This document shows, one piece after another, positions 4,587 through 52,428 of a DNA stretch of 64,000 nt (positions are counted from its first letter, which is position 1; each line of letters opens with the position of its first letter). The DNA is from Prototheca cutis. Lineage: Eukaryota > Chlorophyta > Trebouxiophyceae > Chlorellales > Chlorellaceae. The notes under the pieces were generated by a model. It saw only the letters and a program-made list of their open reading frames with translations, was not told the DNA's origin and ran no database searches. Both the position numbers and the translations under genes were made by a program. The stretch lies in the NCBI GenBank assembly GCA_002897115.2, contig BCIH01000004.1, positions 922,324-986,323 of the forward strand. The letters run 5' to 3'.

Positions 4587-4588
<2 letters not shown>

Positions 4589-10915: not shown

Positions 10916-13347
10916 CTAACCTCCCCCCACTCCCCTGCAAAACTCCATGCACACGTGCCTGAGCAGGTCTGGCAGTGCCGGCGATGACATGGTGAAGACC
11001 ATGGCAATCTGCGGATTCCAACAAAGCAGAGGGTCTTCTTGCCATGGATCGGGTAGGCTTGCATCGAGGACAGCACAGGCAACCCCATCTGAGAATGAGC
11101 ACATGCACGGCACGCCAGGGGGCCTGCATCACCCCCCCCCACACACACACACGTGCGCGCATCCGCTCCCGCACCCGCACCTGTTGTGGCGTCAAAACGT
11201 TCTCGAGGAAAAAGAACGAGCACAGTCCGGAAGAGAGGAGCCACTCTTTTCTGACATTCTCTTGCAGCGCATCGGTAACCCCCCGGAACTGCATGTTGTG
11301 GCAGGTGCAGGTCAGGTGAACATGCGTCGCGCCTGGTCCAGCAGGCTCGCCCCAGCCGTCCCCGATCCCTCCCAAGCCCCAGTGATCTCAACCCCGCCTG
11401 CCCGGCAGCACTCCCCACCTGCAGCGCTGCTTGTGCGTGGTACATCATCACGCTGTCGGGCCGGGGAGCGAGATGCTGGAGCGAGGACATCAACGTTTTC
11501 CGTTCCTTGTACACCTGTGCCGTCGGACGGGTGCCTTTGGTGTGGGTACGGAGCTTTGAGACTGGGTTCTCGTGAGACACACGCACTTGCGCAGCCCGTG
11601 CGCTGTCGATATCCTCTCGTGGACCCAGCGTTTCCTAGCATGTGCCCCCAACCCGACGCACACCCACACCCACACGCATACACAAGACATTGGCATTACC
11701 GCGTGCAGGCTGTGGATGACTTCCTTCTGCTTGGCATCCAGCAGCTCATGCTGACGGGGCGTCAGCCGCAGGCTCTCCAGCACGCCCAGCCAGAACCGCG
11801 AGTCGGTCAAATTCTGCTGGTGGAATGTGGGCGCCCCCTGCACCACTTGACCCAGGACACCCGGTCGCTGGCGGTACAGCTGCCACAGCCTCACACGCTG
11901 TGGGTAAATGGGTGGGGGTGTTGGGAGGGAATGGTTGAGCGCCTGATGTACGGGCTAGGGCCCAGGGTGTCCTGGGTTCAGCGACGCAGGAACAACCCCT
12001 CCCCCCCTTTCAAACCCCCCTTTCAACAAACCCCCTTCCCCCAAACACACATGCTCACCCCATGATGGAAGCACTTGTGAAAAGTCAAGAGTGCATCGGT
12101 GTCGTCATCGCCGCGCGCCTGCACCTCTGCAACGCGGTCAGCCAGCTGGTGCAACTGCTCCACGCCCCGCCGCCACTGTCGCCCCAGCTCCTCTGGAGGG
12201 GATCCGCGCATGTCCTCCAGCTCCCTGCCGGTCGAGCAGCGGGTATGAATGGCGTTGTCTGCTATGGCACTGTCGTTTTAATTGCTCTTTTGCAGTTGAC
12301 CCCCGGGCTCTAAAAGCGGCATTGCCTGCTCGCTCAGTCCCTGGTTCCATGCATGCAGACACGTCGACACCCTTTTCCGCGCTCCCCACCTTTCCCCAAA
12401 CAGCAACAGGCACCCCCCACGCACCCCCCCCAACACCCCACCCCCGACGTACCGTCCCCGCAGGGCGATGGTGTCTGCCTCGGCGTCCAGCGCCGCGGCC
12501 GAGCAGTAGATGATGCCCATCTGACCGGGGGTCAGCCCAGGCTCCACCGTGTACACACCAGTACGGACCAGGTCACCCTGCGTGCGAAGAAAACAGGAAT
12601 GGGCTCACCCAAATGAGCCACCTCCATGCCCACCAGGCGTCTCGCATGGTTCTTGCCCCGAACACGTCCTCCCACCACACTGCTCACCTCCTTGGCAGAG
12701 TTGAGGATGTCTATGGACTCGTCACGCATGCGTATGCACTGCTCAAACGCTTGCTGCGATGCATGCAGCATGGCCCACTCCTGCCGAGCCGCGCCAAGTC
12801 CCTGGGTGAGTTCCATTCGGGAAGTGGCCATCTGCTCCTTTTGCTGCTTGCGCTTGGCCCGGTACGTGGCTTGTGACCTGGCCAGAACAGGATATCCAGG
12901 GGTTGGACATGAATTTCTTTGAAAGGTGCAATGCGCCGTCGGGCACCAGTCACAAAGACATAGCAGCATGCGAACGCATCCAGTACTATTCCCTTTCAAG
13001 GGTGCTCTCAGCTGGCTCACACAACGCCTTGCTTGCACAGCAATGCCTGCAACTAGCAACCCGTTGTAACCTTCCAAGCAGGCACCAGGGGCAAGCCCCA
13101 GGATGGCAGCCTTGCTGGGGGACGCCTCCCGTTCAGATCGCATTTGCTGGATAGACACAGACGCGTCTTCGTGCCCAACCCACAATCCATAACACATTGC
13201 CAGTTCGCCCTACCTTCTGTTCCGGGCCCTGGTCTTCTCCAGAGAGGTCATGGCGCTGGCCTGCGAGGGGACGCTGTGGGGACTCTCCGCACTCCCCTGG
13301 CTGCCCTGCCTTTCCGGCTTGGAGTCAACTACTATGTCGGGCTGCAT
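10916..13347 (-). CDS. bZIP-1, class I bZIP with C-terminal helical module
   Basis: Eight exons: 13347-13214, 12877-12688, 12577-12453, 12224-12059, 11897-11700, 11514-11419, 11288-11181 and 11008-10916 (369 residues, phases consistent). Basic region EKTRARNRRSQATYRAKRKQ spans the first intron (about residues 37-56); it has the N-x7-R spacing and then an amphipathic helix to about residue 108. Then come VYTVEPGLTPGQ, LRLTPRQHELLDAKQKEVI, an NVRKEW helix, LENVLTPQQ and SSPALPDLL. Exon 2 (190 nt) equals the 67-nt basic exon of its sisters fused to the zipper exon; exon 5 fuses the WR and LTPxQ exons. The ATG at 13347 is the first in frame after an upstream stop. Role inferred: nuclear DNA-binding regulator. 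Confidence 0.85.
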
Positions 13348-14311
13348 AATGGCATGTCTGGTGCTGTCCAGACCTCCGTTCCGGGACTGAAAAGCGTGCC
13401 AGACGACGTCGCTTGTTGCGTGGGAGTGGTCCCCCGCCTGGCCCAAGCAAGTCTGTTCGAAACTCCCGGCTATATGCCGAGCGCCCAACTATAGGCCCGC
13501 CTGTGACCTGGCTGGGGTTTTCTTCTCACGGATCAGTTCCTGCGTGTTGGTTCTCAGGGCAAGGCGCGTCCGATCCACCCGAGATCCCATTTTCATTTTG
13601 CGGGGTTACGTCAGCGGTGGCTCAGCTCGTCTTCGTGAAAGGACGCATAAAATACCATGCAGGGCCAAAATAATGCAACCAGCTCAGCCAGCAGCAGCGT
13701 CACATCACCCCGGGAGTCACTGGGCATCACTGATGGCTGTGAATTGTCACCCCCCACAGGGCAATAGGAAGGTGGACTGCCTCAATGATGGACCACCGAG
13801 TTGCAACAAGTGTCGTGCCAGGCTCAATTTCCAGGACTTTCTAAAGCCTCCTTGCACGACCCGTCCTGCTGCAGGAAGGAGCCCAACCCATTCTCTGAAC
13901 GACATGGCAAGGGAATGCGGGGGCAAACAGGCACTTTGTTTGGAACCCATGCCCTTGCTGTGCAGGTGGGAATCTTCTGACGAATCTCGGAAAGGTGTCA
14001 TCGTTTTCTGCCGTAAATGTACAGTATTTTCAAGGCAGCACGTGACAGGGACATTTGCAACGCATGATATATTATGCTTTTGAATTGTGTTCCCGGTGGA
14101 ATAGGGACGCGTGGCGTCCTTGGACGATACTGGCCAGGCATTGCCAGCGGTGGATGGGGGTACGCAGCAGGGGGAAAGGAGAGGAAAGCACATGACAGCA
14201 CCGTAGGGCACCAACGCTTGGATGAATTGGCAAGGGACGCAAGCACGAAATAAGGGGTACAAACACACTTGAGTTGAGGGCCAGGGCCCTGGGGAGGAGG
14301 AAGCAGCGCTC
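13348..14311. other. spacer bZIP-1 / bZIP-2
   Basis: Upstream region of bZIP-1 and 3' flank of bZIP-2. Apart from the TTACGTCA site no feature is supported. Confidence 0.55.
13606..13613 (-). promoter_or_regulatory. TTACGTCA (TGACGTAA) site upstream of bZIP-1
   Basis: ACGT-core bZIP site 259 bp upstream of the start codon. Part of a recurring set in the array. Confidence 0.5.
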
Positions 14312-16963
14312 TCACAGCAGCAGCAGCCCTTGCTGACCACCGGGCTCGGCCACCTGCTCCTGCCGGCTCCGCTCGGCCGCGATGCTGAACAGCCTGTGGA
14401 AGCGGGTGCCAGTGTGACTCTTGTGTGTGTGCGTGTGCGTGCGGCTGAGGCGGCGCGGGCACGTGGGTATTCTGACATGGCAGATGGACTGGGCTTTGGA
14501 GCCGGCACAAATCGCCTTGAGGCACACCCTCCAACCCAGCCCACCCAACGCACTGGAGCATGTCGGGCAGATACGGATACGCCGCCGACAGCATGGCCGC
14601 TTTCTGCAGTGCATAGTTGTTTGTTTTTTGGAAGAAGGGGGGGGGGGGGGGGGGGGGGTCATCGCAGACAAGGAGGGCTGGTTTCCATGTGCACACCGGT
14701 CCCGTCGAGCACCAAGCCTGCACAAGAGCCAACATGCCTGGCGCAGTGAGATGTTGTGGGCAATGGCGGCCATGTAGGCATCACGGTGGGCCACCTTCTC
14801 CTCGTCCAGGTTGACGGCCATGGCGTGCGTGGCAGCACGCCACTGCACCAACGCTTCGGGCGTCGACCCGTCGTCGGGCACCGGCAGTTGTTCCAGGGTT
14901 GCCAGGCACCGTCGCCGCTCCACCAGGATCTGCGATGGGTGAGGGGAGACGACGGTGCAGGGTGGGGAGTGCAGAGTTGGCCGGTTGATGACACAGCTGG
15001 CTGACTTGCAGGCCGACTGCTTTGTCCAGACTGTCCCTGGAGGGTGAGCCAGCAAGAGCTGGTTGCGGTTCACTATGGTGTTCCAACCGCAACTCCCCCC
15101 GGCACCCTTTCAGAACGGCTCCTGCACACCTTGTCCATCCGCTGGATGAGGGCCATCCGAGTTTCCAGCAGCGCCGCAAGCTGCGGTGGCGTCAGCGCCG
15201 CGGCGTCCTGCACGTGTAGCAGATTTTGGGGGGTTTGCAGGGACTAGGTGGTGCTTGGTAGACGCGCAGCGGCCGAGGAGTTTCCTGACGAGTCCAGTCC
15301 CTCTTCAAGAACCCACCATCGCACAAGATACCCGTAAAATGAGCAGATACACGCACAGAGACGAAACACACGGCTCCCCTCTGGGACGGACCATGACGGC
15401 ACTCCAGTGCGCGTGGTGGTGCTCCGGGGGGATCTCAGGCATGCTGCCAATCATGACCTGGCGCACGATGCCGGGGCGGTAACGGCTGCAGCGCCACAGC
15501 AGCTCACGCTGCGGCGATCGGGAGCGGGGTTGTGGCATGAGCGCCGGCGCGCCGCACAAGCCTGAGACCTCAAAGTACCACTGCCACAGCACCCTCGCCA
15601 CCGTTCCCCCGCATGGCATTCCATTCCGTCATGCCAAGCCCTTGCACACCGAGCGGCGGACGGCGTTGACGAGGCGCTCACAGATGAGGTCCAGCGGCCC
15701 CACGCCCTGCACCACGTGGAGGAGATCCAGCGTCTGAAGCGTCTCGGTCCGCGTGTCGCGCCACAGCGCGCTCAGCGTGCTCAGCGGCGTGGCCCTAAAG
15801 GCGGCAATCTCCCTGCAGACATTTGTTTCGAAAGGTGGTGCAGGGGTGTGAGTGTTTTTGTCCTCGGTTGATGGTCCGCAGCCAGCCAGTCAACCCCCCA
15901 CAAACGAACAATCCCCAACGCACGCTGGTTGGAGTGTGGGTGACTGCATCTCGTCCAGGTACCGGCACAGTCCGTCCAGGCACGCGGCCTGGCCAGGGGG
16001 CAGGTCGGGCTCGGTCCAACTGTAGTACAGCGGGGGCGGGTCGCCCTCTGCATTTCCCCAGGCCGGCACGCCCAGCACGGGACTGAAGCCGTGCTTGGCA
16101 CGGATGAGGTTCAGGTAATCCTCGCGTGCCGACAGCAGCTGCTCGTACATGATCGACCGACTTGTCAGCAGCCGGTTTTCACGACGCGCCGACACCAGCT
16201 CGGAATTCAGCTGCGGGCCAGTGCACAGATGGATGAACGGGGAAGATGGGTCAACAGGGTTCCTGAGGTAAGAGTGCCACATGCGAAAGGCAGGGGCGGA
16301 TCACGCTACAACTGCGCCGCACCCGTTCAAACGAGGCCTTGGCATGCTCCGATTCAGCCTTGCGCTTTGCTCGATACCGCGCCTGTGCCCTGCAGTTGTG
16401 TGCGGGAGAGGAAAACAGCTCTCAACAGCCTGATTTAGCGTCGAAAGAACGACCGGCCCCTCCACATGCGCGTGGGAAGCAGCTCGTAGACGAGGCATTC
16501 GCACCTCTGGCAGATTGCGAGCCTAGTCAAACCATGTGCCAGAGTTATCCCGTACATGCACCCCCCAAACTCACTCTCTGTTTCGCTCCCGCGAGCGGCT
16601 GGGGGGCTTGGGCTTGGCGGGCTTTGGGGAGGGCTCCCCGACCGGCTGTGGCGTTGCGGTGTGACAGACGGGCCCCATCTGGGACCCGGGACCGTCCGCG
16701 GGCTTGGCTGGCAGCGCTTTAGATGCCACTTGTCCACCGACTGGGACACCATGAAGGCTACCAAACTGCATATTTGTCAGCTTATCCTGCAACCCCAGGT
16801 CCCCCTGCACGGCCGCGAAATCGCCCAGCGAAAAGGACGGAGGGGAGAGCATGTCGTCCAGGGGCTCGAGGAAGCTCAGGCTAAGGTTGGACGGCGCCCT
16901 GGTCTCCATCTCCAACTGGAATACGTTGTTGGATTTGGAATTAGGATCCTCGCTCTGCTCCAT
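14312..16963 (-). CDS. bZIP-2, class I bZIP with C-terminal helical module
   Basis: Nine exons: 16963-16575, 16389-16323, 16210-15945, 15812-15650, 15508-15392, 15207-15130, 14929-14738, 14603-14554 and 14393-14312 (467 residues). The basic region RSRERNREAQARYRAKRK (about residues 122-140) is cut by a phase-2 intron after NR, and the second exon is exactly 67 nt. A zipper-like helix ELVSARRENRLLTSRSIMYE follows, then a divergent TEPDLPPGQ segment, RELLWRCSRYRPGIVRQVM, ALTPPQLAALLETRMALIQR, ILVERRRCLATL and NLDEEKVAHR, and finally KAAMLSAAYPYLPDMLQ. The intron after HNISLRQ uses a GC donor (CAG|GCATGT), the only frame-compatible choice I found. Function inferred from the family. Confidence 0.86.
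14637..14658. repeat. poly-G run
   Basis: 22 Gs inside an intron of bZIP-2 (between the exons ending at 14738 and starting at 14603). Confidence 0.95.
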
Positions 16964-17338
16964 CGGCCATGCCAGCGCCAGGCGGGCGAACACCCCCTGG
17001 CTCCTGACCCCGCGCGGGACTGGGTAAACCAGCCGCTCTGATTTGGCGGCACTAATTCGTTTCGGTTCGGTAGTGTGGTTCAAGTCTGTACCGCATGTGC
17101 GGGACTTCAATTATTTGGCGGAAATAAGCCTTTGTGCGCGATCACCCGTCGGACAAGAAGTGCCGGTAGGGTTCATGTAATCCACCTCCTTGACTGCGCC
17201 GCACTCCGCCCTGGCCCCCTCTTCGCCAAGTCTATGCGCTATTGACCATTGATGCAAGTAGCCAGAGGCTCAACGCGTCATGCATGCCATGTTTGCAGCG
17301 CTTCGCGGAGGTCTCGCAGGTGCCGACGTGGCAAAAAT
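16964..17338. other. spacer bZIP-2 / bZIP-3
   Basis: No gene. An imperfect site ACGCGTCA lies at 17273-17280, 310 bp upstream of bZIP-2; weak. Confidence 0.5.
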
Positions 17339-20225
17339 TCAACTCCCCATGATGCTGGTTAGGACTCGGCTGGCAAAGCTCCCCTCCCCCTCCTCGTCGT
17401 CGAGCAGGCTCGGAATGATCCTGCGCCCCGGTGCAACCCGCGTTGGATCTAAAACATATGCAGCAATCATCATCGCGGCTCGCTCCCAAGACCTTGCCCG
17501 TCCCAGTGACCAACCAGGTGGCCCACCCCTCACCTGAAGATATCTGGCAAGGTGGGCATGGATACCACCACGAACATGAGCTTCTGCGACAGCAGGTGGG
17601 GGAGGGGGGGATATTCATGATGCTGGATCAGGAAATCATGCTCTGTTCCAATGAATCTATGGCATGCCCACAAAACATATACAGTTGGCTGTCCACCAGA
17701 GGGGCTGGGGTCGTGACAAACCCCTCCGTCCGTCCTCAAGCTGTGCTTCTCACCTGATTGAAATCGAGGATCATACCAAAGGTGCCTGCTACCAGGCCGA
17801 GCATCAGCTCCTGCTCGTCCACTAGTGTCCAGTAAACCGCACTCAGCGCGTCGCTCCACTGTCGGCCGATGGAGCGGGGTGGGGGGGTCGGGAGGGCAAT
17901 CTCACAGATTGATCTCACAGGTGCAGCACCGGCAGCAGGAATGCGGCATTATAGCGTCGTTGCCGAGAGTTCCACCTCGAGGCCCCCATTCTCAGCACGG
18001 ACACCGCCCCACCTCGGAAAACCGGCCAGCCGCCAGGATTGTAGAATCTGCATTGTCCAGACGGAGATCTTGCAGCACCCCCAATGCAGCTGCTCTTCGA
18101 TCCAGCACCTGCAGTGGGTAGGTGACAGCATTTGAATGCGTGCAAGTGTGTGTGTGTAACGGGGGGGGGGGGGGGGGGGCGGGCGCCCACGCGCGCGCCA
18201 GACCGGTCTGTGGAGCTGCAGCAGAAAGTCATCCCGGCCCGGCATCCATCCATCCACCAAGGGTGGCTGTGAAAAGGAACCCGCATGGCCCGACACCGCA
18301 CGCACCTCGTTCAGCTTTTCACGAGTCTGGGCGATATGTCGTCGCATCGCCTCCTGTTGATCCGGCGTTGGCTTGACCGCCTCCTGCGTGCGACACGCCA
18401 CGGCAATGGATCTCGGGGATTCGTCCTTGGGGTTCAGGGGCAGCAGTGTTCCTTGCCATACAGCCACACGCCCGCACTCATGTGGCCGCACAACCGACCA
18501 AACATCGCCAGAAAAATTTTGCACTCTGCCCCTGGCCCTCCCCTCGACGCGAGATGGGGGACACACATTCCATCCCAGACACGCACGATGCCGCGGCGCC
18601 AGAGATCGATGCTGTCCTGGCCTGGACTTCCCATCTCCCGCTGCACCGCGTCCATGATACTCTTGAGCCGGCCAGGCATGCACCTCGATACGCAGAGCAG
18701 ATCGCGCCGCTGCATTGTGTGTTGGATGTGCGGGCAAGGGGTTGCACTCTCGAAACCACTGGTGTCAATCATCAAGGGTCGCCACAGGATGCAGCTGGCA
18801 CCAGCACATCCCTACTCAAATGCTGCTCACCTGCGCATGCATCGACTGCATCACATCTGCCTGCCACGTGGCATCTGTTGCCTTTGAAGGCGCCAGGGCG
18901 AGCCCCTCAAACAGCTCCTGGAGATGGACATAGTTCGACACAAATCTTGCCGCCATGGCCTCCGTCGACATGTTCTCCAGTGCCAGCAACTCTCTGCCAT
19001 TTTTTGTATTTATTTAGGGGGGGGAGGCGGAGGGGGGTTGCTCATATTTGCACGCTTCTTTGAGCAGCGAGGGCAATTCCCCCACAAAACAACAAGGAAG
19101 CGGAAAGGAAACAACCCACTTGGTGGTCAAGCGTTCTGCGTCGGTCTTGCTCGCCCATCGCACTGCCCCCCGGAACATGATCATTTGACCCTGTGAGAAC
19201 CCAGGCTCTGTGTGCAGCACATAGCCGTGGGTATCCGGGCTTGACAAGGACCTCTCGATGGGGTTCTGCAGCAGGAGAGGAGATCAGAGGACGCACTTGC
19301 TTGGGGCACACAGCTGCTTCGAGGTCCGATCGCAGCCACCGAGGCACCCAATGCCTTGACCAGCATCTGCCGCCCGCCGCCGCGCCCCCCCCNNNNNNNN
19401 NNNNNNNCCCCCCCCCCAATTCTCACCTGTTCCATGGCTGACACAACCCCGCTCAGATACACGCCTAGTTTCTCCAACGTCTGGTAGTTGGTCGTCAGCA
19501 TGGCATGCTCCTGCCGTGCCAGCTCCAGCTCATGCCGCACCTGGGCAGGAAAGAAGGAAACGGCCATCCCGCGTTGTAGGCGTGCGCAGTTTCAACGCTA
19601 CCCAGAGGCAAGTGCACTTTCAGCGCCATGCATAACAAAAAGAAAGTAAATTATACTCTGGCGCGGCCATGACAATAGCATCAACCCCATGTCGTGAACC
19701 TTCCCCCCAGCAGTTGTCACGGCAGCACACCCCGCGCCGCCGCCCAACCAACCTGTAGCTGACTGTCTTTAGCGGCTGTTTTCTCGCGCTGCAGTCGTGC
19801 CCTGTATTTGGCCTGCGCCCTGCAGCAATGGCAGCACAGCGTGGGACTGAGCCTGTGGCATGTATGCCCTTCCAGGCATGCATGCCCCACCAGGGACCCA
19901 CCCATGGCTGGGCCCAACCCACAAGTTCGACTCACTCTCGATTTCGCTTGAGCCTTGCCTCCCGTTTATCATCCGTCGTTAGCGAGAATGGGTGAGGCTG
20001 GACATCCTCCTTGCTGTCGGCCTGCGGTCGCCTTCCTGTTGCCATGCTGTCGTTGTCGGAGACGGAGGGCAGGGACCCCGACCCCTCGCCAGGCAGGTCC
20101 CATGCCGGATCACGCCATTCAAAGTCCAAAGCACCCGAGGCGCTGGCCTCTATCAGTATATTGGGACCATGACGGAACCCATCAAACATCTTGCCACCAT
20201 CTTCCTCGAGCATGGCTGCATCCAT
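17339..20225 (-). CDS. bZIP-3, class I bZIP with C-terminal helical module
   Basis: Eleven exons, the most divided member: 20225-19936, 19819-19753 (67 nt), 19540-19427, 19265-19120, 18993-18831, 18709-18587, 18383-18306, 18108-18013, 17858-17754, 17583-17534 and 17492-17339 (461 residues, all phases fit). N-terminus is acidic (MDAAMLEEDGG). Basic region RLKRNREAQAKYRARLQREK (about residues 90-110), then zipper VRHELELARQEHAMLTTNYQ, VLHTEPGFSQGQ, an STEAMAARF helix, RRDLLCVSRCMPGRLKSIMD, TPDQQEAMRRHIAQTREKL, VLDRRAAALGVL, LVDEQELMLGL and MPTLPDIF. This gene gives the reference exon ladder for class I. A run of 15 Ns lies in the intron at 19393-19407. Confidence 0.86.
18160..18179. repeat. poly-G run
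   Basis: Homopolymer in a bZIP-3 intron; C-run on the sense strand. Confidence 0.9.
19381..19418. repeat. C-run with 15-N gap
   Basis: Poly-C flanking Ns 19393-19407, in the bZIP-3 intron after the zipper exon (ends 19427). Unresolved homopolymer. Confidence 0.95.
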
Positions 20226-20847
20226 GGCCACCTCCGAACGCGAACGCCGGTGTCCGGAGTCACGGAAGGTTAAAAAGCACACATACTGCACGCCCTGCAG
20301 CGTTGGAGATGCCACATCCTTACTCTGGACTTATAGAATCCATTCAAGTCCATTTCCCGTTGCGGACAACATTTGTCTCGGCGACGGAGACGACTCTCGG
20401 GTCCCCCCACCCCCGATGAACAGTCCCGAACTCGACAACCTGATGACGTAAACCACAGTTGCTTGCATGTGCAGCTGGACCTGGCTATGGGGGCCGGTTC
20501 CTCACAGGAAGTTTGATTGCGACTCTTCAGAAAATGAACGTGCATCTGCACTGGTAGGCATCTGGCATGGTCTGAGCCGACGGACTGCGTGATAGCCTGT
20601 GCTTTGCAGAGGGTCAGCGCAAGGACAGTCAATACAATGCAGCGGAGCAGCAAGGAAAAAATCAATGTGGCGCAGCGCAGAAATCTGAAATCATGTGCAG
20701 CGGCTTTCACAGCCACATGCAGCTGGCTTGTGGCCCATGGCATGCAACTGATGCGGATCCGCCGGTCCTACCAGTCCCGTCGTCGATGCAGGGTGGAGGG
20801 GTGGCACGCCGCACATGCGTTGGCCGGGACAACAAGAGACTCCTGTT
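20226..20847. other. spacer bZIP-3 / bZIP-4
   Basis: No coding exon supported. Holds the TGACGTAA site of bZIP-3. Confidence 0.5.
20444..20451 (+). promoter_or_regulatory. TGACGTAA site upstream of bZIP-3
   Basis: 219 bp upstream of the bZIP-3 start; same octamer as upstream of bZIP-1, 5, 8 and 12 but in the opposite orientation. Confidence 0.5.
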
Positions 20848-35250: not shown

Positions 35251-35311
<61 letters not shown>

Positions 35312-36307: not shown

Positions 36308-36808
36308 GCCGCTACGCGCCTCCTGCGCTCTGAGACCACGAGGAGAAGGCAGCACGCAGGTGCGAGAGTCCCGTCGTGCCCGGACGGGTATGGACTCGCC
36401 AGCACACAGCCGTACCGCCCAATGTAAAGGAAAGTATTACACAACTCGCGCACGCGTCCGCAAATCGCCATGGTGTTTAGCTTGAGTAGCGGAGTGCGTC
36501 GCATCTGGGGTTACGTCACGCGCCTAGCCGAGATCAGCCGGAGGCCCGGCGGGGATAGGTTCTTCCTCTGGGGACAGATCGGGCCAACAGATTTGTTTTC
36601 TACCAGCCCAGGGACCCCAATGTGCACGGGCCTTGCAAGTAGGAATGGTCACGAGTATGACAACGTGAATGACATACAATGAGAATACAGAGGTTAGCAG
36701 ACATGTACACGTGCACATTCCAGTGCAACTGGTGCTGGTCACTGGTGGGGGGCGCGGGGGGGGGGGGGGGGGGCGCTTGGCCCCTTGCCACACGCTCGGT
36801 TCCATGGC
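36308..36808. other. spacer bZIP-8 / bZIP-9
   Basis: Upstream region of bZIP-8 and 3' flank of bZIP-9, with a long G-run at about 36749-36771. No coding exon. Confidence 0.55.
36511..36518 (-). promoter_or_regulatory. TTACGTCA (TGACGTAA) site upstream of bZIP-8
   Basis: 204 bp upstream of the bZIP-8 start codon. Confidence 0.5.
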
Positions 36809-39892: not shown

Positions 39893-42608
39893 TCATGCTC
39901 CGGCTGCCGAGCATGTAGCCATTCCTCCACATGCTCGGGCAAACTGTGGCCCCTGCAAAAAATGGTTGTAATCGCAGTTGGCGTCATAGGTGTTGTAGTC
40001 GCTCTCTCGAAAACCGAGCATGCCGCTGCACATCTCCCGCCACGTCTCCTCTGCTTCCAAGGCGGAAATGGGGCCGAAAGGCTCCACTAGCCCACACGAC
40101 GTCTCCCACGAGATCAGCAACCTGCGGCACACCTCCGGGAAAAGGGGAGCTATGAGTAATGGGAAACCCTGAACCCACCCGCTGGCTGCCATCTTGCAGC
40201 AGACTGGCAACAGGGATCCCAGGAACAAACAATATGCGGCCTGCCTCCACTGTCCCAAGGCCACAGCCCAAGCCATCTGACTTTGTGCGGCGGCACAGGA
40301 CCGTCAGTTGCAACCCCCTGCTGTTCAGCACCCAAGCTCAATCCCAACGGCACTCGATGGTCGGTAACCCTAACGACCACTCCCACACGACGCACTGAGC
40401 AATGTCTGGCGGGCCCATTTGCGCACACAGCACAAGCATCCTCGCCTTCTGCATGGCATACGCGGGCGTTGCGAGGCAGGGAAATGTGCAGGGTGAACGC
40501 GCAGTGTTCCAGGCATGACCACGGTATGAAGGCCGCAGCTTCTCGACACACCCTTGCTGCCATTCCACTTGCAAGGAGATGCGCATGGGGATTACCACAG
40601 TCAAGCACATTATGAACAGTTTTGACAGGGGCCCATGGAACATTGCTGTTTCCAACCCGCCCCAATGAATACATGCGCAAGAGCCCTCACATGCCACTCC
40701 CAGCCATGCAAACACGCTTGCCTGCCAAAAGTCCAAAAGACTCGCAAAAACTGCAAAGACGGCACCGCGATACACATCTCGCTCCCGCTCCACAGAGCTC
40801 TCCAGTTCATTCACCAGCTCTGATGTCTGTCGGGCAGAGTGGGGGTGGTCAGTAGCAGGGCAGTGGGATGCTGCAGCGTACGATGGTGTCCCAGAAACCT
40901 TTTTTTCCTGCCTGACTAGACCAGTACAATGGAATCCCGGAGTCGTCTCAACCCCGCATCGCTCGTGCTGGCTCTCTACAATGCCAAGCACTCTTTCTGG
41001 ACCCCCAGGCACATACACCACACCTTGCCAATGTCTTGGCCATAAGGCAGCAGCGGCCAAATGCGGTCGGGCCGCTGCAGCTCTTCGACCATGACGGAGA
41101 TCCTTTGCCGCTCCTCCATGACATCCGCAACCTTGCGCCGCACCGCCCGTGCCAGTCTTGCCAGCTTCAAGCCCTGCTCGCGCGTCAGCCGCATCTCGTC
41201 CTGCGAGGATTGTGCCGGCGGAGGCATGGTCTGTTGCCGAGACACAGGTAGGTCCACTGCAGCGCGAGCAGGGGCTCTCCCAAGCGCCAATCCCCCCTGC
41301 AACACGCCACACCGTCTTCTCCAAGCCGTCAAAACCCTAACCGCTCATGCCGATCCATGCTCAGCACGCACCATCACGCCAGACCAGTCGTCCCTGTCAG
41401 CGACACTCATCAGCTTCTTGAGCTCCAGCAGGCGCCCAGACATGTAATGTGAGATGCGGAACTGGAACGCCCTCTGCGCGGCAATTTTACGAGTGCAGGT
41501 ATGAAGGCAAATCAGCACACGGTCAGGGCTGGTAAACGAAAGCAAGTGTGAAGGCGCCGTCCTGCCGTTTGAAACGAGAACCGATGTCTAAGATGGCACG
41601 CTCACATGCAGTGCCCCTCGCCCCGCTCTTCAATGGAGCACCAGGTCTAGACGACACACTTCAAGGCGCCGCATCCTCCAACTCACAAGCCCAACGACCC
41701 CATCCCATGCGTGGCACCAATATGCACACCCCGTAGACGAGCATGGCCTTGAGCTGCTCGGCCATATGCTCGTCCCCGCCACGCTCCACCTGGTGCAGGA
41801 GGTCGCGGAACTGTGACATCAGGCGCTGGTACGTCGCGACGATGGCCCCTGGCTTGACGGCGGCAAAGGCTGCGGCCTCCTTGGGTCCCAGCACCACAGC
41901 ACCAACCCAGCGGTCGTCCTGAGAACAAAATCCGTGGAGGAGCGCCAGCTGGCTCTGTGTCAGACCGGGCTCGGCGTAGTTGCACGCCGGCAGCCGGTGG
42001 GGGCCCCCAGCACAACAGCTGGTCGCCAGAACTTGTGCATAGCTGTCCCGGACATGGAGCAGCTTTTCAAGCGTGGCTTGCTCAACCGCCAGCATGCCTG
42101 CTTCGGCACGAGCTGCATTCAGCGCCGCTCGGGTCTCGGCGTGTTTGCTCGTCAGCGCCTGGATACTGCGCTTGTGCCTTTCCCGGTAGCGCCGCTGCGC
42201 ACGACGGTTGGAATGCCTCTGGCGATCTTGCCGTTCGAAACACTTCTCGACGGTCAGCTCCACTGGCGGACGGCCCCGGCCGGGGCCGGCTGATGGTGCT
42301 CTATGAGCGTGACTGCCGGAAGTTGGACCGGTCTGGGAGCTAGACAGCCTTCTGGCCAGAGCCTCCCCTTCAGGGTTATCGGATGAAACGCTCGCGTCTT
42401 GACCTGACGTGCATGCCATGCTAGACAGGGGCTCCAGCTCAGAGATGCCGTCCGCAGTCCACATGCCGATCAAATCCCGGTTGTCCTCCCCGTTGGGAAC
42501 ACCCGGGGGGAAGCCGGGCCCATCTCCAATCGGATCGTGCTTCCACCACACGTCCTCCAACATGTCGACCAAGTCCATGAACTTTTCTTGCTCTCCAGAA
42601 AGCTCCAT
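39893..42608 (-). CDS. bZIP-10, class II bZIP, sister of bZIP-9
   Basis: Six exons: 42608-41730, 41473-41372 (102), 41200-41024 (177), 40826-40722 (105), 40448-40396 (53) and 40121-39893; 514 residues. Basic region RQRHSNRRAQRRYRERHKR (about residues 129-147), zipper-like LNAARAEAGMLAVEQATLEK, CNYAEPGLTQSQLALLHGFC, FQFRISHYMSGRLLELKKLM, MRLTREQGLKLARLARAV, SSVERERDVYRGAVFAVF, MGPPDIA, LLISWETSCGLVEPFGPISA, and a tail with spaced cysteines. Exon 3 shares a 148-base ungapped, nearly identical block with bZIP-9. GC donor after DFWQ (CAG|GCAAGC), as in bZIP-9. Confidence 0.88.
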
Positions 42609-43107: not shown

Positions 43108-44785
43108 TCACGACGGCCTGGCGACATTGGCGAAGGAAGTTTGGTGTGCCAGGCATTCGCCGGTGGGGCCGCCATAACCCGTGCAGAGTGCGCACCACGT
43201 CTCAGAGGCCTCAGCCTCGGTCACCGGGGCGCCGGCCGGGACGAGGCCGCACACCCGCTCCCATTGCGCCAGAATGCTGCAACGAGTCGAGGCAAGAGGG
43301 TGGTTTGGGTGGAACGGAGACGTCCGATGCGCACGCCCGCCTGGCATTGTCTTTCAATGACCAGCACAGCGCAATGCCGCCGTCAACCCACGGCGCATCG
43401 CCGGGCGCCCAGCAGAGGGCACGGCAGAAGGCACTGCTCAGAGCATGCCATCGGCTGGTTGTGGACCGGGCATTCACAACCCGTGCAGATTGCCGCAGGT
43501 CATACTGTTTGCACAAACCCCTAGTCAGGAACCAAGAAACAAGAGGCAGGCCTGCAGCCGCATGCGCAGTGGCACCTTGCAATGTCCGGTGGACCCAAGC
43601 GGGTGACCAGGAGCAGCATGATGAGTCTCTGCATGGACCGGGGTGGAGAGGGTAGCAGTGGGGGGCCCACACAGTTGCAGGCGGTTCCTGTCCGCTGAAA
43701 GGCCGATGAGATGCCTGGATTCTCCCCTTCCTGCGTGCCCATGGTCAACCCCACAAGTCGCAGGCCCTTGCCAGAATGGACGATGAGTGTGTGTTGAATC
43801 CTGCCCGGCTTCCACACAACCGATGGGTTCCCCCATCCAAACACACCTGCCAGGGGCTGAGGATGTGCAGAAACATCACATGCATTGCATGGCAGTAGGT
43901 TTGGCGTTCCTGCACGGTTATCTCCTGCAGAGACTGCAGGATCTCGGTCGCCTGCATGACGAAGAGTGGGGACAGACTCAATGTCAGCACCAGCATCACA
44001 ACATCTGGGGCCAGCTCCATGCCCGGCGTGGAAGCCATATGTGTGTGGGGGAGGGTGGTCTTTCAGACCGTTTGAGTGAACCCATTTGAGTGAACCTAAA
44101 TGTTGGAAGTGCACACACTGCAAGCACGCTCCAAAGACAGCCAAACACACGTGAGAGCCCTTGCAGCCGGGCATTACATTGCAGGTGGCGACCCAGAGCT
44201 GTTTGCCATCGCACCTGGGCCGTGCCTTGACCTCCAATCCTGAGCGGTCGGCCCTGCTCGGCCTGGCGCAGTCTGTCAATCCGTTCCTTGAGCTGCACAC
44301 GGGCCTCCAGCAGCTGGCACAACTTCCATCTCAGAGCCCTCGCCAGTTGGGCCAGCTGCATGCCCTGGCCTCGGGCTGGCATGAGCTTAATCTACATAGA
44401 AGCGGGGAGGTTGGCGGTAGAGACCCGAGCAGTCATATCACGTCGCGCATTCCCATGACCATGCAAGCACATGGCTATGCACATGGGGCATGCGCCCCAG
44501 ACGTCCGTCCACCCAAGGACGCAGCAACCCGGCTCACCGCGAGGCCAAGCCATTCGGATTCGGTGGGTTGGCCAAAAGCTGCCTGGATCTTGGCGTAGCT
44601 CCCGGGTTGGTAGTGCACCACACGCCAGTGGAACGCACTCTGGGGAGTTGCAGGGCCACAGCTGTCGCTCAGTGCAGCTGCTGCCAGAGGACCCACACCC
44701 TGGGGCATCCTGGTTNTCCCCCCCCNCCCCCACCCGCCATTGGAGCATCGACCGCCCTGCCTCACAGTTCCCTTTCCCCTAATCC

Positions 44786-44855
<70 letters not shown>

Positions 44856-45912
44856 CAAAATCGCCATCCCGCCAACCACCGGGCCATTATCCCGCCCCAC
44901 ATGCCCTCACCGCGTTGGCCATGGCTGCCGTGATGAGAGCGCCCACTCTGGCTCGTGATTCCCCACCTCCCACGAGCGCAAGCAGGTCACGGACAATGGT
45001 CCAGTTCCTCACGTACCAGGCGGCCAGGACCTCGACGCTGAGCGCGGCAAAGCGGGCAGCGTCCGCTGGAGGCAGCGCGGCGTGGGCCGAGCCGTGGCGC
45101 GGCAGGTGGCAGTACCCGTGCAGGACGGCACTCTGACACACCGTCAGCCCTGGCTCCGAAAAGTTGCAGGCAGGCACCACCAGCTGGGAAGCCTGCCCCG
45201 CACGCTGCAGCATGCCCACAAACATGTCCTGCAGGCGCAGCATGCTCTCCAGCGCGCCACGCTCCCCCGCCAGGAAGGCCGCGTCGGCCCGCGCCGAGGC
45301 GACAGACAAACGTGCGCGGTTCAGGCGCCAGGCCTGCGCAGCCAACAGCCCATCCTGTCGCACCTGGCGCCATGGCTGTGCCCGAGAACTGCTCTCCCTC
45401 AGTCTGACGCGCCAGGCCTCAGGGCCCAGGGGCGGCCGGCCCGGCACTCGGGGCCTCGCAGTGCCGGCCGAGCCGCTCCGGCCGCGGGAAGATGAGTGAC
45501 TGCTCCTGTCGCCAATTGGAGACGGCAAGGTCTGGGTACCAGTGACCGAGCAAACACCCGGGGCGCTGGAGGTGCTTGCGCCGACGAGGTCCCTGGGAGG
45601 TGGAGCAGCGCAGGGGTCTGCATCCTGGGCATCTGGGACCGCCACACAATCCGAGCAACTCGCTCCTAAGCTGCCGGTCAGAGGGCTTGGATTTGGGGGC
45701 TCCGCATCGCCAACGCAAGCAGGGGGGCCGGCGGTGGTACCTTGTGCCCGCAGCAACCGGAGCGCCTCCCCGAGGTGCGAGGGCAAACTCTCGTCGAGGC
45801 AAGTCACCAAGTCTGGTATTCCTTCCACGCCAAATTGACGATCCAAAAGGGACTCAAACTCGTCGAGGTGTTCTGACCAATTTCCTTGCTCGTCAAAGCC
45901 TTGGGTTGTCAT
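43108..45912 (-). CDS. bZIP-11, class II paralogue with damaged basic region
   Basis: Six exons: 45912-44911, 44639-44538 (102), 44391-44215 (177), 43951-43847 (105), 43628-43576 (53) and 43276-43108; 535 residues, open throughout. The region aligned to the basic helix (about 45360-45415) reads RLRESSSRAQPWRQVRQDG: the invariant Asn is Ser, a Pro follows RAQ, and one residue is missing relative to paralogues. The rest is intact: LNRARLSVASARADAAFLAG, CNFSEPGLTVCQSAVLHGYC, LPPADAARFAAL, FHWRVVHYQPGSYAKIQ, LAQLARALRWKLCQLLEARV, TVQERQTYCHAM, LGPPDIA, ILAQWERVCGLVPAGAPVTE. Probably dimerises but binds DNA poorly or differently (inference). Confidence 0.85.
44787..44852. repeat. CA microsatellite
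   Basis: In intron 1 of bZIP-11; isolated Ns at 44716 and 44726 mark a C-run in the same intron. Confidence 0.95.
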
Positions 45913-46604: not shown

Positions 46605-49192
46605 CTACCGTGCGTCCACCTCGAGTGGATGCGCGGGCCCTCTCTGCCAAGAATGGTGATGAGGATGCCCGACCTGGCTCAACAAGTCGGTCCAAGTCTG
46701 CCGAGCTTCCAGCGCAGGCACATCAGAGAAGGGTGCCATCAAACCGCACGTCTCCTCCCATTTCATCAGCAGCCTGCAATGGCTTGTTGGAGGGGAGGGT
46801 GGAGGAAGGGGGGGGGGGCCCAGAGAATGGCAGTACGGGNGGGTCAGGGCGACTCCCCAATCAACTCCTTGTCGGGGCAAACCCAGCTTGTGCACTGCCG
46901 CCAGTGCAGGGAAAGGATCGACCACGCTCGCCACACCCCACGCAAGCTTGGCGCAGATCCAGGAAACAGGCACATGCCAGTTCCAAACCCATGCACCAAG
47001 CATGCATCCGGATTGTGCCCCAGCAGTGTCATACTTGAAAACATCCGGTGGTCCGGCTTCCAGGTACAGCATGATCAGCTTGGCTTTCTGCATGTGGGAG
47101 CGGTGCGATGAGGAGCCTGGTAATGGCTGCTGACACCCGAGTCCATCATTCGGCGTCCGTGCCATCCCAAGCTCTTAAAAACATGTCACAAGCCGCATGG
47201 CACTGCACATGCCGGCTCCAGGCCTTGTTACGGAAAACACTACCGGCACCCGGCATGTGGCCAGGTCCCGCTGCCGAGGCATCACCTGCCAGGGTCGCAG
47301 AATGTGCCCAAACAGAGCCTGAATCGTCTGGCAGTAGACATCCCGTTCTTCCTGGATGCTCCGACACAAAGCCTCGACAAGTTCTGCCACCTGCGAGAGA
47401 GTGGGCAGGTGTGATCGAACCAGATCAGGCCCTCATTCGAGGGCAGCAAGGCGCCTCTGTTGTCGCCGCACCAGGCCAAGCACCTTGGCCAACAGCACTG
47501 CGTTCGACAAACTAGATTCAGGCGACGACTGCTCGTGGGGAGCTTGAAAACCGTGCAGGCGTGCCCACCTCCTCACTGCACAATCGAGCTGTACCCCGTG
47601 TCACCACCCTTTCTCAGCACTCAACGACCCCCAAGATGGATGTCAGGGGAAGCACCAATGACCGCATCCGCACCTCGAGTGTCCCGCTGCTTGATGTCTT
47701 GAGCGGCCACGCCTCGTCAGCGCGACGCACAGCATCAACAGCGGCCTGAAGCCGCGCTCGTCGGTCCAGCACCTGATCAACCTCCCACCTCATGGCACGG
47801 GCCAGCCGGATCATCAGCACGCCCTGGTCCCTGCTCGGCCTGATCTGACACTGCATCACAGGCCAGTGCATTTGCCGTGAAAGGTTTTTTGGGGGTCCGG
47901 GGTTGTTCGGGGTGTGAGTTGTTTGCGGGGCGCCTGCCTGCCCGGGCACACTGCTCTCCATGGCGCAGCCATCACCACGACGTCGGCATCCCCATCGCAA
48001 GGCGGCCCCAATGACCATTTAAAGTCACGTACCATGGCATCCTGCAAGTCTAGGGCTGGGTGCTTGGCAACGGACCTCCTGACCTCCTGCCAGTATCCGG
48101 GCATGTAGTGGACCACACGCCAGTGAAAGGGTCTCTGCGCAGTTGAGCAACAGCGTGGGTATGTTTCTGTTAGTCCCTCGGCATGCTGCGAACTGGACAG
48201 CTCTTCAGCCGGCCATCGAGAGATGACGGCTCTGAACATCCAATCCGCGGATGGACGCTCCAGACCTGGCACACCTGGCGGCCCCCCTCTTCCCACGCAT
48301 CAGCAGCACAACGCCCACCCACCACGCAGCGCACCATGTCGCAGAATATGTTCCATATCTGGTGCTCCAGTGCCTCGATGTTGCCGTCACCGATGCTTGG
48401 CAGCAGATCACCGATCATTGCCCACCACCGGGCGTACCGGGCTGCCACGGTCGCCGGCTTGAGCGCAACAAAGGCCGCGGCCTCCGCCGGGGACAGCACC
48501 GTGCCTGCACAGTTGAACTTGTTGAGGTGGCAAAACCCATGGAGTACCGCGACCTGACTCACTGTCAGACCTGGCTCGTCAAACCGACAGCGCGGTCGCT
48601 GCCCGGGACCAGTGCCAGTCATCGAAGGCTCTCCCGCACGCTGCAGCACGTCCGTGAATGAGTCCCGCACGACCATGAGCTTCTCTAGGACGGATTGCTC
48701 AGCCGCCAGCATGGCTGCCTCGGCCCGTGCTGCATTCAGTGCCGCTCGGGCCTCGGCGTGTCTCACCGTCAGTGCCTGCGCGTCGTCCTGTCGCCTGGCG
48801 CGATACCGCTGCTGCGCCTGGCGGTTGCACTCCCGCATCCGCGCAGACCGCTCCTCGGCGCTCAGCATGGACTTCCTGCCTCGCCGCCTGGCGCTGGGGA
48901 CAGGGAGCACTGGCGCGGCACCGAAAGTTGCCGGGCCCGCCACGCTGGCATGCTCGCCGCCTGTCCCCGAAGTCTGGCTCGCAGATGCCTGCTCCGAGCC
49001 GGTGCATGTCAGGCCCGGTGACAGATCACAGTCTGGCAGCAGGTCCGTGCGGTCGGGAGAAGCTCCAGGCTCCTGGGGATCAGCTCGCCAATGCTCAAGG
49101 CCTGCCGGTGTCCACGTCTGTGGGACCCGGCTGCCGGGAGCAGCGCTTGCCAGGAGCCCATCCTGCCCAGTGCATAACTCAGACCACTCCAT
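46605..49192 (-). CDS. bZIP-12, class II bZIP
   Basis: Six exons: 49192-48335, 48134-48033 (102), 47850-47674 (177), 47390-47286 (105), 47087-47035 (53) and 46773-46605; 487 residues. Basic region RMRECNRQAQQRYRARRQ (about residues 118-135), zipper-like LNAARAEAAMLAAEQSVLEK, CRFDEPGLTVSQVAVLHGFC, LSPAEAAAFVALKPATVAAR, FHWRVVHYMPGYWQEVRRSV, RPSRDQGVLMIRLARAMR, LDRRARLQAAV, SIQEERDVYCQTIQALF, KAKLIMLYLEAGPPDVF, LLMKWEETCGLMAPFSDVPA, His-rich end HPHHHSWQ. A single N at 46840 lies in the last intron. Start ATG 49192 (MEWSELCTGQDG). Confidence 0.88.
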
Positions 49193-50207
49193 CAAAGCAT
49201 GTGGTTCCGAGGGATGCGCCAGTCGGGGGTGCCTCCCGCTTGCGCGCCCCTGCGCCCGCTCGACCGTCGAGCCTGAGCGCTTGTTTGCTTATGATGGCGA
49301 TGGGGGTATCGGGACCTGCGACGAACCATGCATGAAGCTATCCGCTCAGTCATACCCATGTCAAGATGGCTCTTTTACAGCCAATCACAGCAAGTTTGCG
49401 CCGCGTGCGTGTCCCAGATTCTGCCAGGTGAGGCCCGATCTCGACACATCACATTTACGTCATTCCTAATTCCCCGGAACCCGCCGCAGATCAGATCTCC
49501 GGGCTCCGCAAACAGCATCCATCAGGGGGCCCACGCTTCAAGGCGTCACCACCTTTGCACGTGGCAATCCCCCACGCAACTTGTCTAAAGCTTGTTTAAT
49601 TTCATCCACAACTCGTGGCACCATGCATCCACCACCCCTTTCTTATCCTTGCACATGCGCTCTGCACAACGCACAATTGTACAGGTGCGGTCGGGATGTG
49701 GCAAGACGTGCTCGCAGCGGCGGCACGTGCGCCCGCCTAAGAGACTCCGCCGTGGAGGCCGCAACCTTTGTGCAGCCGTCCGTCCGTCAGGCGCGTCAAA
49801 GGCAGCACCAACATCGCATCGCAGCACGCCGCATGGACCGTAAATCAGAAAGAGAAAGAGGGACGGGTGATGGCCAAGGTGTCCGGGCCGAGCCCAGCAC
49901 GCTCGTGGGGCCAGGGGAGGGGGGGCACTTGGTTCTCACGAGCGCCGTGCCGCCACCAGCCCTGCAGACATGGCACAGCTGTCCCAACCCCCCTTGGCTC
50001 AGCCCCATATGGCAACAAAATGATTCAGTGGTGAACACGGTCCACATGCATGGGTAGTACACGAAACACATCGATCGGTCAGCCAGTCGGTCCCGGGCCC
50101 AGGATAGCGGCCGTCGCCCCCTCAGGCCCGGCTTTGGCCTGCCTCCCCGGAGGTAGGCAAGCATGCCCGGGTGCCCCGGATCACCGGGGCATCTGAGCCC
50201 AACGCAC
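49193..50207. other. spacer bZIP-12 / bZIP-13
   Basis: 1 kb without a supported gene; contains the bZIP-12 TTACGTCA site and the 3' flank of bZIP-13. Confidence 0.5.
49455..49462 (-). promoter_or_regulatory. TTACGTCA (TGACGTAA) site upstream of bZIP-12
   Basis: 263 bp upstream of the bZIP-12 start codon. Confidence 0.5.
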
Positions 50208-52428
50208 TCAGCTGCGTTCCTGGAGCATGATGTCCCCCGCCTGGCGCGATGCTTCCAGCATGGGAGCCACCGCGTCCGGGCGACCGCTGCAGGCCGTGGC
50301 GATGCTGTAAATGTCTGGGAAGTACGGGTAGGACCGCACAATGGCGACGGCCTTTTGCTGCGGACTCAGCACGCCCCCAAACCCCCGCGACACAAACTCC
50401 ATGCAGACCAGGTGCTCCTGCTGCAGGTTGGCCGACAGCTCGCTCGTCGCCCGGTTGACACGCAGCCACTCGGCCGTCGTCTGCTGCAGCGCCTGCAGAC
50501 TGTCTGTCGGGGTCACGGCCGACAGCTGCCCCAGGATGGCACGCCGCTCCTCCATCACGCGCCCGATGCGACGCAAAAACACGTCGCGCAGCGGAATCAG
50601 CGCGGCGCGCTGCTCGTCGCTCAACTGCAGCTCCGAGGCAACAAATGCCCAGTGTGCCGCGTCGCCGCCCGCGGGTGCGGGTGCAGCGGGCACAGCTGCT
50701 GTGCCAGACGCGTCGGCGACGATGGCTCCCTTGCTGCTCGCGTGGGCAACAGCACCGCCGGCCTTCACCGCGCCAGCGGCCGCCGCTGGGGCCGCACCCG
50801 ACACGCCCAGGTTGGCGGCCAGGAGCTGCTGGATGTTGCTGGGCTTGTACACGGCATGCTCAAAGCAGTAGACGCGGGCCTCCCGAAGAGCGTCGCCGAG
50901 GACTGCCTCCGCCGCCTCCCGCGCTCCGGCATCGCTGCCGGCCGCCGCCAGCATTTGCAGCGCGTCCTCAAGCTGCGGCACCAGCGCCTTCCAGGCCGTC
51001 ACGACAGAGGCCGGGTCGGATCGCTTGATGCAATCCACCTCCGCTGCGTCCAGACCCGTCAGACCACACCGCGGCACCGGCGCCCGCGAGCCTGCCGTGC
51101 CCAAGCCAGCACCAGCACCGCCGCTGGCGCCCAGGATGTAGTCGGCATAGGCGCCGCGGCCTTCGACGAGGGCCGGCTTGAGGTCGGGCTCATCTCCCTG
51201 GAGTTCGGGCACGGCAAACACGGGGGCCAGGGGCCGCGGTGGCGCGGCGCCGCCCAGCTGCTTGATGGAATCGCAGTCAATCTCGGCCAGGCGCATCGGC
51301 GGCCGGCGCGAGTCGGTGACGGTACCGGGGGCCAGCGCCGTCTCCGGGGCCGAGGCCATGGCTGAACCCTTGAGGCTCGCCATGTACCCCTCGCGCACAG
51401 TCAGCACCCGGTCCATCAGGTCGTTGGAGTGCATCAGCGCAGCATTCTCCAGTCGCAGTCGGGCCAGCTCCTCGGCAACCTGTGCACCACGAGCGCGTGC
51501 AAGCGGGGTTACAGCGGCGTCGCATGCAGCAAGCGTTCCAAGCCAGAAGACCGAGGTCTGATGGGGATCCATGAGACTGATCTGGATTTCAGGAAGAAAT
51601 TACTGTCCCAAGAGAACAAGCCCTGCATCGAGTTTCCCACCACAAACACAGATTGCATGACCAAGATCGACACCACGCCCTCCGGCAGTAGCCACCCGAG
51701 GACACCCACCTCCTCGTGAGTCTGCATGGTGTGCTGGGCTTGCGCCCGCAGCTTGGCGCGGTACCGGACCTGGGCCCTGCCAAGGGAAGGAAGGGTGATG
51801 CAGAGCCGTGAGCAGACAGCCCAGCGACATCTTGGGCCTGCTCTTCGCCAAGACGGGATTGCGGGTGCCGTGGCGGGCGGTCCTGCGTGGCCTCTACGAT
51901 CCTGGGCCCACTCCCACGTGCATGCATGCATGGCCACATGCATCATACCAGCACAATCCACGACAATGCATGCCATACGGATGGCCAGCGCGCCAACTTC
52001 CCCATAACATCGTCAAGGTGCATGCATGCGGGCGGCAGTGCCACCGCCTCCTGGACAGCCCCCGACCCTCAGCTCCCCTCGTAAACCAGCAGACTCTACC
52101 AGCAGACTCTACTCCCGATATACCTTCTATTTTTTGCACGGATGCGCTCCAGCTGCTCCGAGTCCTTGGGCTTGGAGTTGCCCTTCTTGGCGCCTCGCCC
52201 CTTCTTGGGAGCCTGGCTCTCGTTGACATATGTCGGAGACTCGGAGGACTGCGGGACCGAGTCGGAGGCACCCAAGCTCCCTGAGTCAGCCTGGGAGGGC
52301 GCCTGGAGGCCCTCATGGAAGAAGATGTTCCTGCCGCCAGTGAAGCTGTCGTAGGGCAGCACCGGGAGGGTGTCGCCGAAGAGCGGGTCCATCTCCAACG
52401 ACGGCAAGCTCGCGTCCACCTGCGTCAT
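50208..52428 (-). CDS. bZIP-13, class I bZIP, intron-poor and longest
   Basis: Three exons only: 52428-52124, 51776-51710 (67 nt) and 51479-50208; 547 residues. Basic region RIRAKNRRAQVRYRAKLRAQ (about residues 95-114) is split at the same phase-2 position as in bZIP-1 to 5. Zipper VAEELARLRLENAALMHSND follows. An Ala/Gly-rich region of about 200 residues contains PKALVPQL-like helices. The C-terminal module is entire in one exon: LQLSDEQRAALIPLRDVFLR, MEERRAILGQLSAV, ELSANLQQEHLVCMEF, GVLSPQQKAVAIVRSYPYFP, DIYSIATACSGRP. It is the rightmost member and may be closest to the ancestral form (inference). Confidence 0.88.

What the first reader, a model, noticed from the sequence alone, without database searches (positions are those of the whole stretch)
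10916..52428. Thirteen bZIP-family genes in one 41.5-kb same-strand tandem array
Every gene between the tryptophanyl-tRNA synthetase and RRP40 is a paralogue of one bZIP family, with no foreign gene in between. bZIP genes are normally dispersed; such a local amplification of one transcription-factor family, each with its own N-terminus but a common C-terminal module, suggests a combinatorial dimerisation set or an expanded sensing repertoire.
Basis: partly seen in the sequence, partly recalled or inferred. Interest (0 to 1): 0.9.

Follow-up and report, generated by a model that had tools for sequence, protein, structure and literature searches.

The report
Thirteen-gene tandem bZIP array, colourless alga
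A colourless green alga carries thirteen gene-regulator (bZIP) genes side by side: one conserved ancestral gene and twelve fast-evolving copies, three of which seem to have lost residues that grip DNA, and five of which have a bZIP-type binding site in front of them.

Summary
Confirmed: 13 related bZIP-type genes lie on the minus strand of 10916-52428 between the tryptophanyl-tRNA synthetase gene and RRP40. Two scaffold lengths match Prototheca cutis JCM 15793. The 13 are not one exclusive clade: copy M, next to RRP40, groups with a Micractinium/Chlorella bZIP; A-L form a fast-evolving clade, 99/100, not found elsewhere in this genome. Tree and gene order agree, and I and J share a gene-conversion tract: growth by unequal crossing-over is likely. 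D (uncertain), F and K lack basic-region residues, yet F and K keep open frames. In A-L a core zipper Leu is lost (12 of 12) and a buried Asn (11 of 12); crude charge scores favour a dispersed paralogue (C1) as partner over each other. TGACGTAA, a bZIP-type site, stands upstream of 5 of 13 copies; genome frequency predicts 0.07. Best reading: a lineage-specific set of derived bZIP partner/modulator proteins, partly cross-regulated. Origin is well supported; function is inferred. No structure, expression or synteny data were available.

The parts
50208..52428 (-). copy M, conserved founder-type bZIP gene (start 52428, basic region split by a phase-2 intron 51777-52123, zipper and C-terminal domain in one exon)
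46677..49192 (-). copy L, derived array bZIP
43126..45912 (-). copy K, derived array bZIP; basic-region residues lost (N to S, R to Q), module frames open
39896..42608 (-). copy J, derived array bZIP; exon 3 shares a conversion tract with I
36827..39439 (-). copy I, derived array bZIP; has a relative in another, unnamed source (P0004)
34057..36307 (-). copy H, derived array bZIP
31075..33249 (-). copy G, derived array bZIP; start codon uncertain
27800..29585 (-). copy F, derived array bZIP; basic region degenerate; start codon uncertain
24934..27010 (-). copy E, divergent array bZIP; approximate model; intron in basic region as in M
21297..23654 (-). copy D, divergent array bZIP; approximate model; invariant Asn apparently lost
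17534..20225 (-). copy C, divergent array bZIP; approximate model; holds the 15-N run
14554..16963 (-). copy B, divergent array bZIP; approximate model, end uncertain
10916..13347 (-). copy A, divergent array bZIP; approximate model
49455..49462 (-). TGACGTAA site upstream of L
36511..36518 (-). TGACGTAA site upstream of H
27288..27295 (-). TGACGTAA site upstream of E
20444..20451 (+). TGACGTAA site upstream of C, inverted relative to the gene
13606..13613 (-). TGACGTAA site upstream of A
37950..38133 (-). exon 3 of I with its edges, 88.6% identical in DNA to 41021-41204 of J: conversion tract

Best explanation
A conserved trebouxiophyte bZIP gene (M, next to RRP40) probably seeded, by repeated unequal crossing-over, a head-to-tail array of twelve derived paralogues (A-L) that gene conversion still touches. 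The derived proteins keep an activation-like variable N-terminus (judged by eye), a bZIP region and a common C-terminal module. Their zippers are altered: the buried Asn is gone from 11 of 12 and a core Leu is Ala in 12 of 12. Most likely they pair with a conserved bZIP such as the dispersed C1 paralogue or M and shift its DNA binding. Copies without a working basic region (F, K, perhaps D) would act as DNA-binding-deficient partners. Part of the array is itself under control of a bZIP through TGACGTAA sites. Shown: homology, clade, order, conversion tract, open frames, residue changes, site enrichment. Inferred: pairing, target change, inhibition, autoregulation.
For: A-L (with P0004) 99/100, M with P0001 100/99 and with Micractinium/Chlorella 92/89. 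Neighbours on the chromosome are neighbours on the tree (12 copies; node-count Spearman 0.65, 0 of 10000 permutations as high; branch lengths 0.41, 37 of 10000). Phase-2 intron at the same place in the basic region of M, A, B, C, E (D inferred), absent from the C1 gene model. I/J exon 3 dS 0.28 against 0.69 to 1.94 in the other five exons. dN/dS over the modules 0.22 to 0.49 in the six pairs tested, F-G 0.26, K-L 0.49. Neutral simulation of a K or F branch leaves no stop in 0 to 7 of 1000 runs. Array-type modules were not found elsewhere in the genome (30 of 32 matches of the copy-I query in the array, the other two on C1 at E 9e-5 and 0.07; 10 of 13 for copy E). TGACGTAA: 208 in 19.89 Mb, 5 in the array (expected 0.43, P 9e-5), all 5 within 500 bp upstream of a start (expected 0.07, P 1.1e-8; 3.8e-4 after correction for all 8-mers); they begin 211 to 285 bases before the start codon.
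Against: Eight of 13 copies, M among them, lack the exact site (best 1 to 3 mismatches), and the sites TTASTAA, TGASTCA, TTACGTAA and TGACGTCA, tested first, were absent upstream. TGACGTAA was found by an open 8-mer scan, and duplicated promoters are not independent. Partner scores rest on four charge pairs per zipper and on an alignment in which B has a 2-residue insertion and M and A-E rest on splice models. dS is near saturation, so dN/dS is rough; single modules reach 0.64 (K-L bZIP, G-H mid), and selection on A-E was not measured. Whether A-L stem from M or from the M/C1 ancestor is not resolved by the unrooted tree. No copy's zipper passes Pfam's bZIP cut-off. No expression or binding data.
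Confidence: 0.45

Rival explanations
1. One reading: the 13 proteins pair with each other in many combinations, and each N-terminus adds its own output.
For: Zipper a, d, e and g positions differ between copies; the residue at the buried-Asn position is W, N, H, R, H in A-E and Ala in F-L. B scores positive with every array member.
Against: The mean charge score inside A-L is no better for mixed pairs (-0.41) than for self-pairs (-0.33), and I-L repel each other; C1, outside the array, is the best-scoring partner of 12 of 12.
Confidence: 0.2
2. Mostly non-adaptive: a tandem array grown by unequal crossing-over whose copies drift and decay, with little function beyond M.
For: Long branches for A-E, loss of basic-region residues in F, K and D; weak C-terminal modules in A and C; dN/dS 0.64 in the K-L bZIP stretch.
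Against: Open module frames, and dN/dS under 0.5 over all modules in the six F-L pairs tested; a foreign relative of copy I keeps bZIP, mid and exon-2 modules; shared site upstream of 5 copies. For A-E selection was not measured.
Confidence: 0.25
3. A repertoire of signal-sensing regulators, in which the shared C-terminal module binds different ligands or partners.
For: In the M-type proteins most invariant columns lie in the C-terminal module, and the module varies among array copies.
Against: No Pfam domain of sensing type in the frames scanned: only a borderline LTXXQ match in M (24.6 bits, cut-off 24.3); no significant solved relative. Fold not obtained.
Confidence: 0.1
4. Assembly artefact of a short-read scaffold.
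For: The matching assembly is HiSeq 2500 with contig N50 56 kb (PMC11302234 table); a 15-N run lies in copy C.
Against: Best DNA match between copies is 88.6% over 184 bases, and 70 of 78 pairs show none; only one short N run.
Confidence: 0.02

Closest known systems
Conserved trebouxiophyte bZIP gene (Micractinium conductrix C2E20_2624, Chlorella ohadii COHA_007449)
   Same: Same basic region (N-R-R-A-Q-x-R-Y-R), zipper and C-terminal module as copy M (36% over 86% and 32% over 56%)
   Different: A-L have an extra EPGLT..Q stretch (clear in most), F-L an extra C-terminal exon; zipper Asn and Leu lost; tandem array
Fungal AP-1-like bZIPs (Pap1/Yap; resemblance recalled)
   Same: Gln and Phe/Tyr at the recalled signature places of the basic region in most copies; weak profile hits to Pap1 1gd2 (E 4.2) and to a bZIP of 7aw7 (E 0.27)
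   Different: Hits not significant; C-terminal module not matched; cysteine-rich domains not tested
Plant TGA (group D) bZIPs with a DOG1 domain (recalled)
   Same: bZIP followed by a larger C-terminal module (by eye)
   Different: No DOG1 match in Pfam at E <= 1 for the M exon
Tandem arrays of other transcription factors (KRAB zinc fingers, nematode nuclear receptors, plant B3/MADS; recalled)
   Same: Local lineage-specific amplification with fast divergence
   Different: bZIP, a dimeric class; DNA-binding residues lost in some members

Membership tests
bZIP | Basic region with N-x7-R | tested here: met
   Both residues present in 10 of 13 (A, B, C, E, G, H, I, J, L, M); not met by D (model uncertain), F, K
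bZIP | Leucine zipper heptads in register with the basic region | tested here: inconclusive
   Hydrophobic at d31/d38 in most, but Ala at d24 in 12 of 12 array copies against Leu in M, C1, P0002
bZIP | Pfam bZIP models above the curated cut-off | tested here: not met
   0 of 13: F-L as exon frames (best 18.5 bits against 27.6), A-E and M as spliced stretches (best M, 21.1 against 22.3). C1 passes (31.4). The Micractinium protein P0002 also fails (18.6 against 27.6), so the cut-off is strict for this subfamily
M-type trebouxiophyte bZIP subfamily | One clade with Micractinium/Chlorella proteins | tested here: met
   M: 92/89 with them, 100/99 with P0001; A-L lie outside
TGA/DOG1 bZIP | DOG1 domain | tested here: not met
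   No match for the M C-terminal exon at E <= 1
Fungal AP-1 (Yap/Pap1) | Cysteine-rich redox domains | not tested
   Only the basic region was compared

The most novel reading that the evidence does not exclude
The array is a self-wired hub-and-spoke switchboard: twelve derived bZIPs, some unable to bind DNA, pair poorly with each other and compete for one dispersed hub (C1), while TGACGTAA sites let the hub dimers set the dose of array members.
Probability: 0.15. Interest if true: 0.75.

Novelty: new variant of a known kind. Interest (0 to 1): 0.55.

Why it matters
Colourless Prototheca are reported to have fewer transcription factors, bZIPs among them, though one P. cutis strain (20-25310) is said to show only partial loss (PMC11302234, passages). 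Here one locus holds 13 bZIP-type genes, more than the 8 places elsewhere that PF00170 finds, and none of the 13 passes that library's bZIP cut-offs. Counts by standard models can therefore mislead. The array is also a compact natural set for testing how a dimerising factor family diverges after duplication, including loss of DNA contacts.

Tried and rejected
A strict clade of all 13 was rejected. Eight bZIP-type patterns upstream gave no clear excess, apart from ACGT (30 against 15) and perhaps CACGTG (4 against 1.8). Search for the fold failed: the queue never accepted a job. Profile search of solved structures gave no significant relative. A foreign gene on the other strand was looked for in 10 frames and not found. 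Separate trees of exon 1 and exons 2-6 (10 rows) showed no conflict for F-G and K-L; I-J was unresolved in exon 1. Synteny in relatives could not be tested: I found no other algal genome within reach of the tools. Literature on a bZIP array: nothing on point in the listings (listings only, except passages of PMC11302234, PMC7941945, PMC8847788 and abstract and passages of PMC5349851); the five papers that hold such phrases were not opened.

Rows dropped: P0008-P0012 were left out of the tree (P0008 a fragment; P0009-P0012 match 8% of the query). The start of A was moved from 13251 to 13347 after the site scan; the site lies within 500 bases either way.
Full report
What was checked. The window is G000:C4:922324-986323 of a 19.89-Mb genome in 23 contigs. 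Contig C1 is 2,465,851 and C6 1,409,608 bases long. These equal the maximum length and scaffold N50 that a table in PMC11302234 gives for Prototheca cutis JCM 15793 (GCA_002897115.2, 20,029,045 bases in 46 scaffolds, GC 60.24%, HiSeq 2500, contig N50 56,125). The light-harvesting family PF00504 was not found. I take the organism to be that colourless alga, an opportunist of human skin (recalled).

Anatomy. All 13 copies lie on the minus strand and are named A (low coordinates) to M (next to RRP40). Zipper-region similarity was found in all 13. Exon models came from a spliced aligner written here; those of A-E are approximate. F-L share exon 1 (N-terminus, bZIP, a mid stretch around EPGLT..Q, poor in F), exon 2 (F.WRV.HY type), exon 3 (LT..QG..L type), exon 4 (L.....ER..Y type), exon 5 (GPPDIA type) and a last exon (AWE...GL type). 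Profiles of five of these modules, built without A-E, recover A-E in order, best in the bZIP part. The flanks are the tryptophanyl-tRNA synthetase gene (minus strand) and RRP40 (plus strand), so M and RRP40 are head to head.

Family. M matches a Micractinium conductrix protein (36% over 86%), a Chlorella ohadii protein (32% over 56%) and an unnamed one (60% over 57%); 3 proteins passed among 8000 scored. A profile search gave 10 of 8000, four of them over 8% of the query only. Copy I found one protein of 8000 at E <= 1: P0004, 62% over 50%, from an unnamed assembly. In this genome the M-type family has further members on C1, C12 and C8. The array type was not found elsewhere: 30 of 32 matches of the copy-I query lie in the array, the other two on C1 (E 9e-5, the C1 bZIP, and 0.07); of 13 matches of the copy-E query 10 lie in the array, two at the C1 gene (E 0.004 and 0.3) and one on C9 (E 0.04). 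These searches score only the best candidates, so they are lower bounds. None of the 13 passes a Pfam bZIP cut-off, and neither does the Micractinium protein; the C1 gene does.

Tree (23 rows, 382 of 483 columns). A-L with P0004 are one side of a branch, 99/100. M pairs with P0001 (100/99) and joins Micractinium and Chlorella (92/89). C1, C12 and C8 group at 92/94. Holding A-M with P0004 together is rejected (AU p 0.013). Long branches (C, D, C12, C8) make their places unsure. F-G, K-L and I-J(+P0004) are neighbours both on the tree and on the chromosome; the correlation is 0.65 by node count (0 of 10000 permutations) and 0.41 by branch length (37 of 10000). P0004 sits with I rather than J (92/82), so I and J may have parted before the two organisms did. 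M, A, B, C and E share a phase-2 intron inside the basic region, D probably; the C1 gene model has none there. That favours descent from an M-like gene, though introns of outside orthologues are unknown.

Ongoing exchange. I and J are 88.6% identical in DNA over 184 bases at exon 3, with dS 0.28 there against 1.12, 1.94, 0.78, 0.69 and 1.56 in exons 1, 2, 4, 5, 6: a gene-conversion tract.

Basic region and zipper. N-x7-R is present in 10 of 13. K has S and Q in the two places, F has lost N and Q, D has Ala for Asn on the likeliest splice reading. F and K keep open module frames: neutral simulations of 288 and 304 codons leave no stop in 0 to 7 of 1000 runs, depending on branch length. dN/dS over the modules is 0.26 (F-G) and 0.49 (K-L), rough because dS is 1 to 2; the K-L bZIP stretch alone gives 0.64, which suggests relaxation there. 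The conserved Asn at a zipper a position (M, C1, P0002) is kept only by B among A-L, and the core d position just before it is Ala in all of A-L. The register depends on the alignment (B has a 2-residue insertion; M and A-E rest on splice models). Charge scores over four g-e pairs make I, J, K and L repel themselves and each other, give no gain for mixed pairs inside A-L, and make C1 the best-scoring partner of 12 of 12. This is a crude score and only suggests a hub.

A shared site. Eight bZIP-type patterns tested first showed no clear excess upstream except ACGT (30 against 15) and perhaps CACGTG (4 against 1.8). An open scan of 8-mers in the 500 bases before each start put TGACGTAA first: 5 of 13 copies (A, C, E, H, L), and those are all 5 in the window. 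The genome holds 208, which predicts 0.43 for the array and 0.07 for the 6.5 kb of upstream sequence (P 1.1e-8; 3.8e-4 after correction for all 8-mers). The sites begin 211 to 285 bases before the start codon. Among the 98 of 208 places tabulated (those listed on C1-C4), no 41.5-kb stretch away from the array holds more than 3. Against: 8 copies, M included, lack it; no listed site lies near the C1 gene; the motif was picked after the fact; duplicated promoters are not independent, although blastn showed no upstream match between copies. The site joins a TGAC and a TTAC half; conjoined half-sites are usual for bZIP heterodimers (PMC5349851, abstract and passages). Applying that here is inference.

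Verdict. Origin by unequal crossing-over and conversion is about 0.9 likely. The function offered, derived partners and DNA-binding-deficient modulators of a conserved bZIP with partial cross-regulation, is perhaps 0.35 likely by itself. No expression, binding, structure or synteny data could be had.

Noticed in passing
window 35245-35309 and 44787-44852: (AC)n microsatellites of about 32-33 units stand in the same intron (after exon 1) of copies H and K.
   Followed up: no
window 50208-51599: The C-terminal part of M gives a borderline Pfam LTXXQ match (24.6 bits, cut-off 24.3), perhaps a helical look-alike.
   Followed up: no
window 1881-4814: Minus-strand frame of 978 codons with a borderline BAT2_N match (25.3 bits, cut-off 25) and many Gln runs; a (GT)46 repeat lies within it.
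   Followed up: no
window 62062-63960: Minus-strand frame with a LAIKA domain match (28.4 bits, cut-off 27).
   Followed up: no
genome G000: TGACGTAA is rare in this genome: 208 against 728 for the pattern read backwards.
   Followed up: partly
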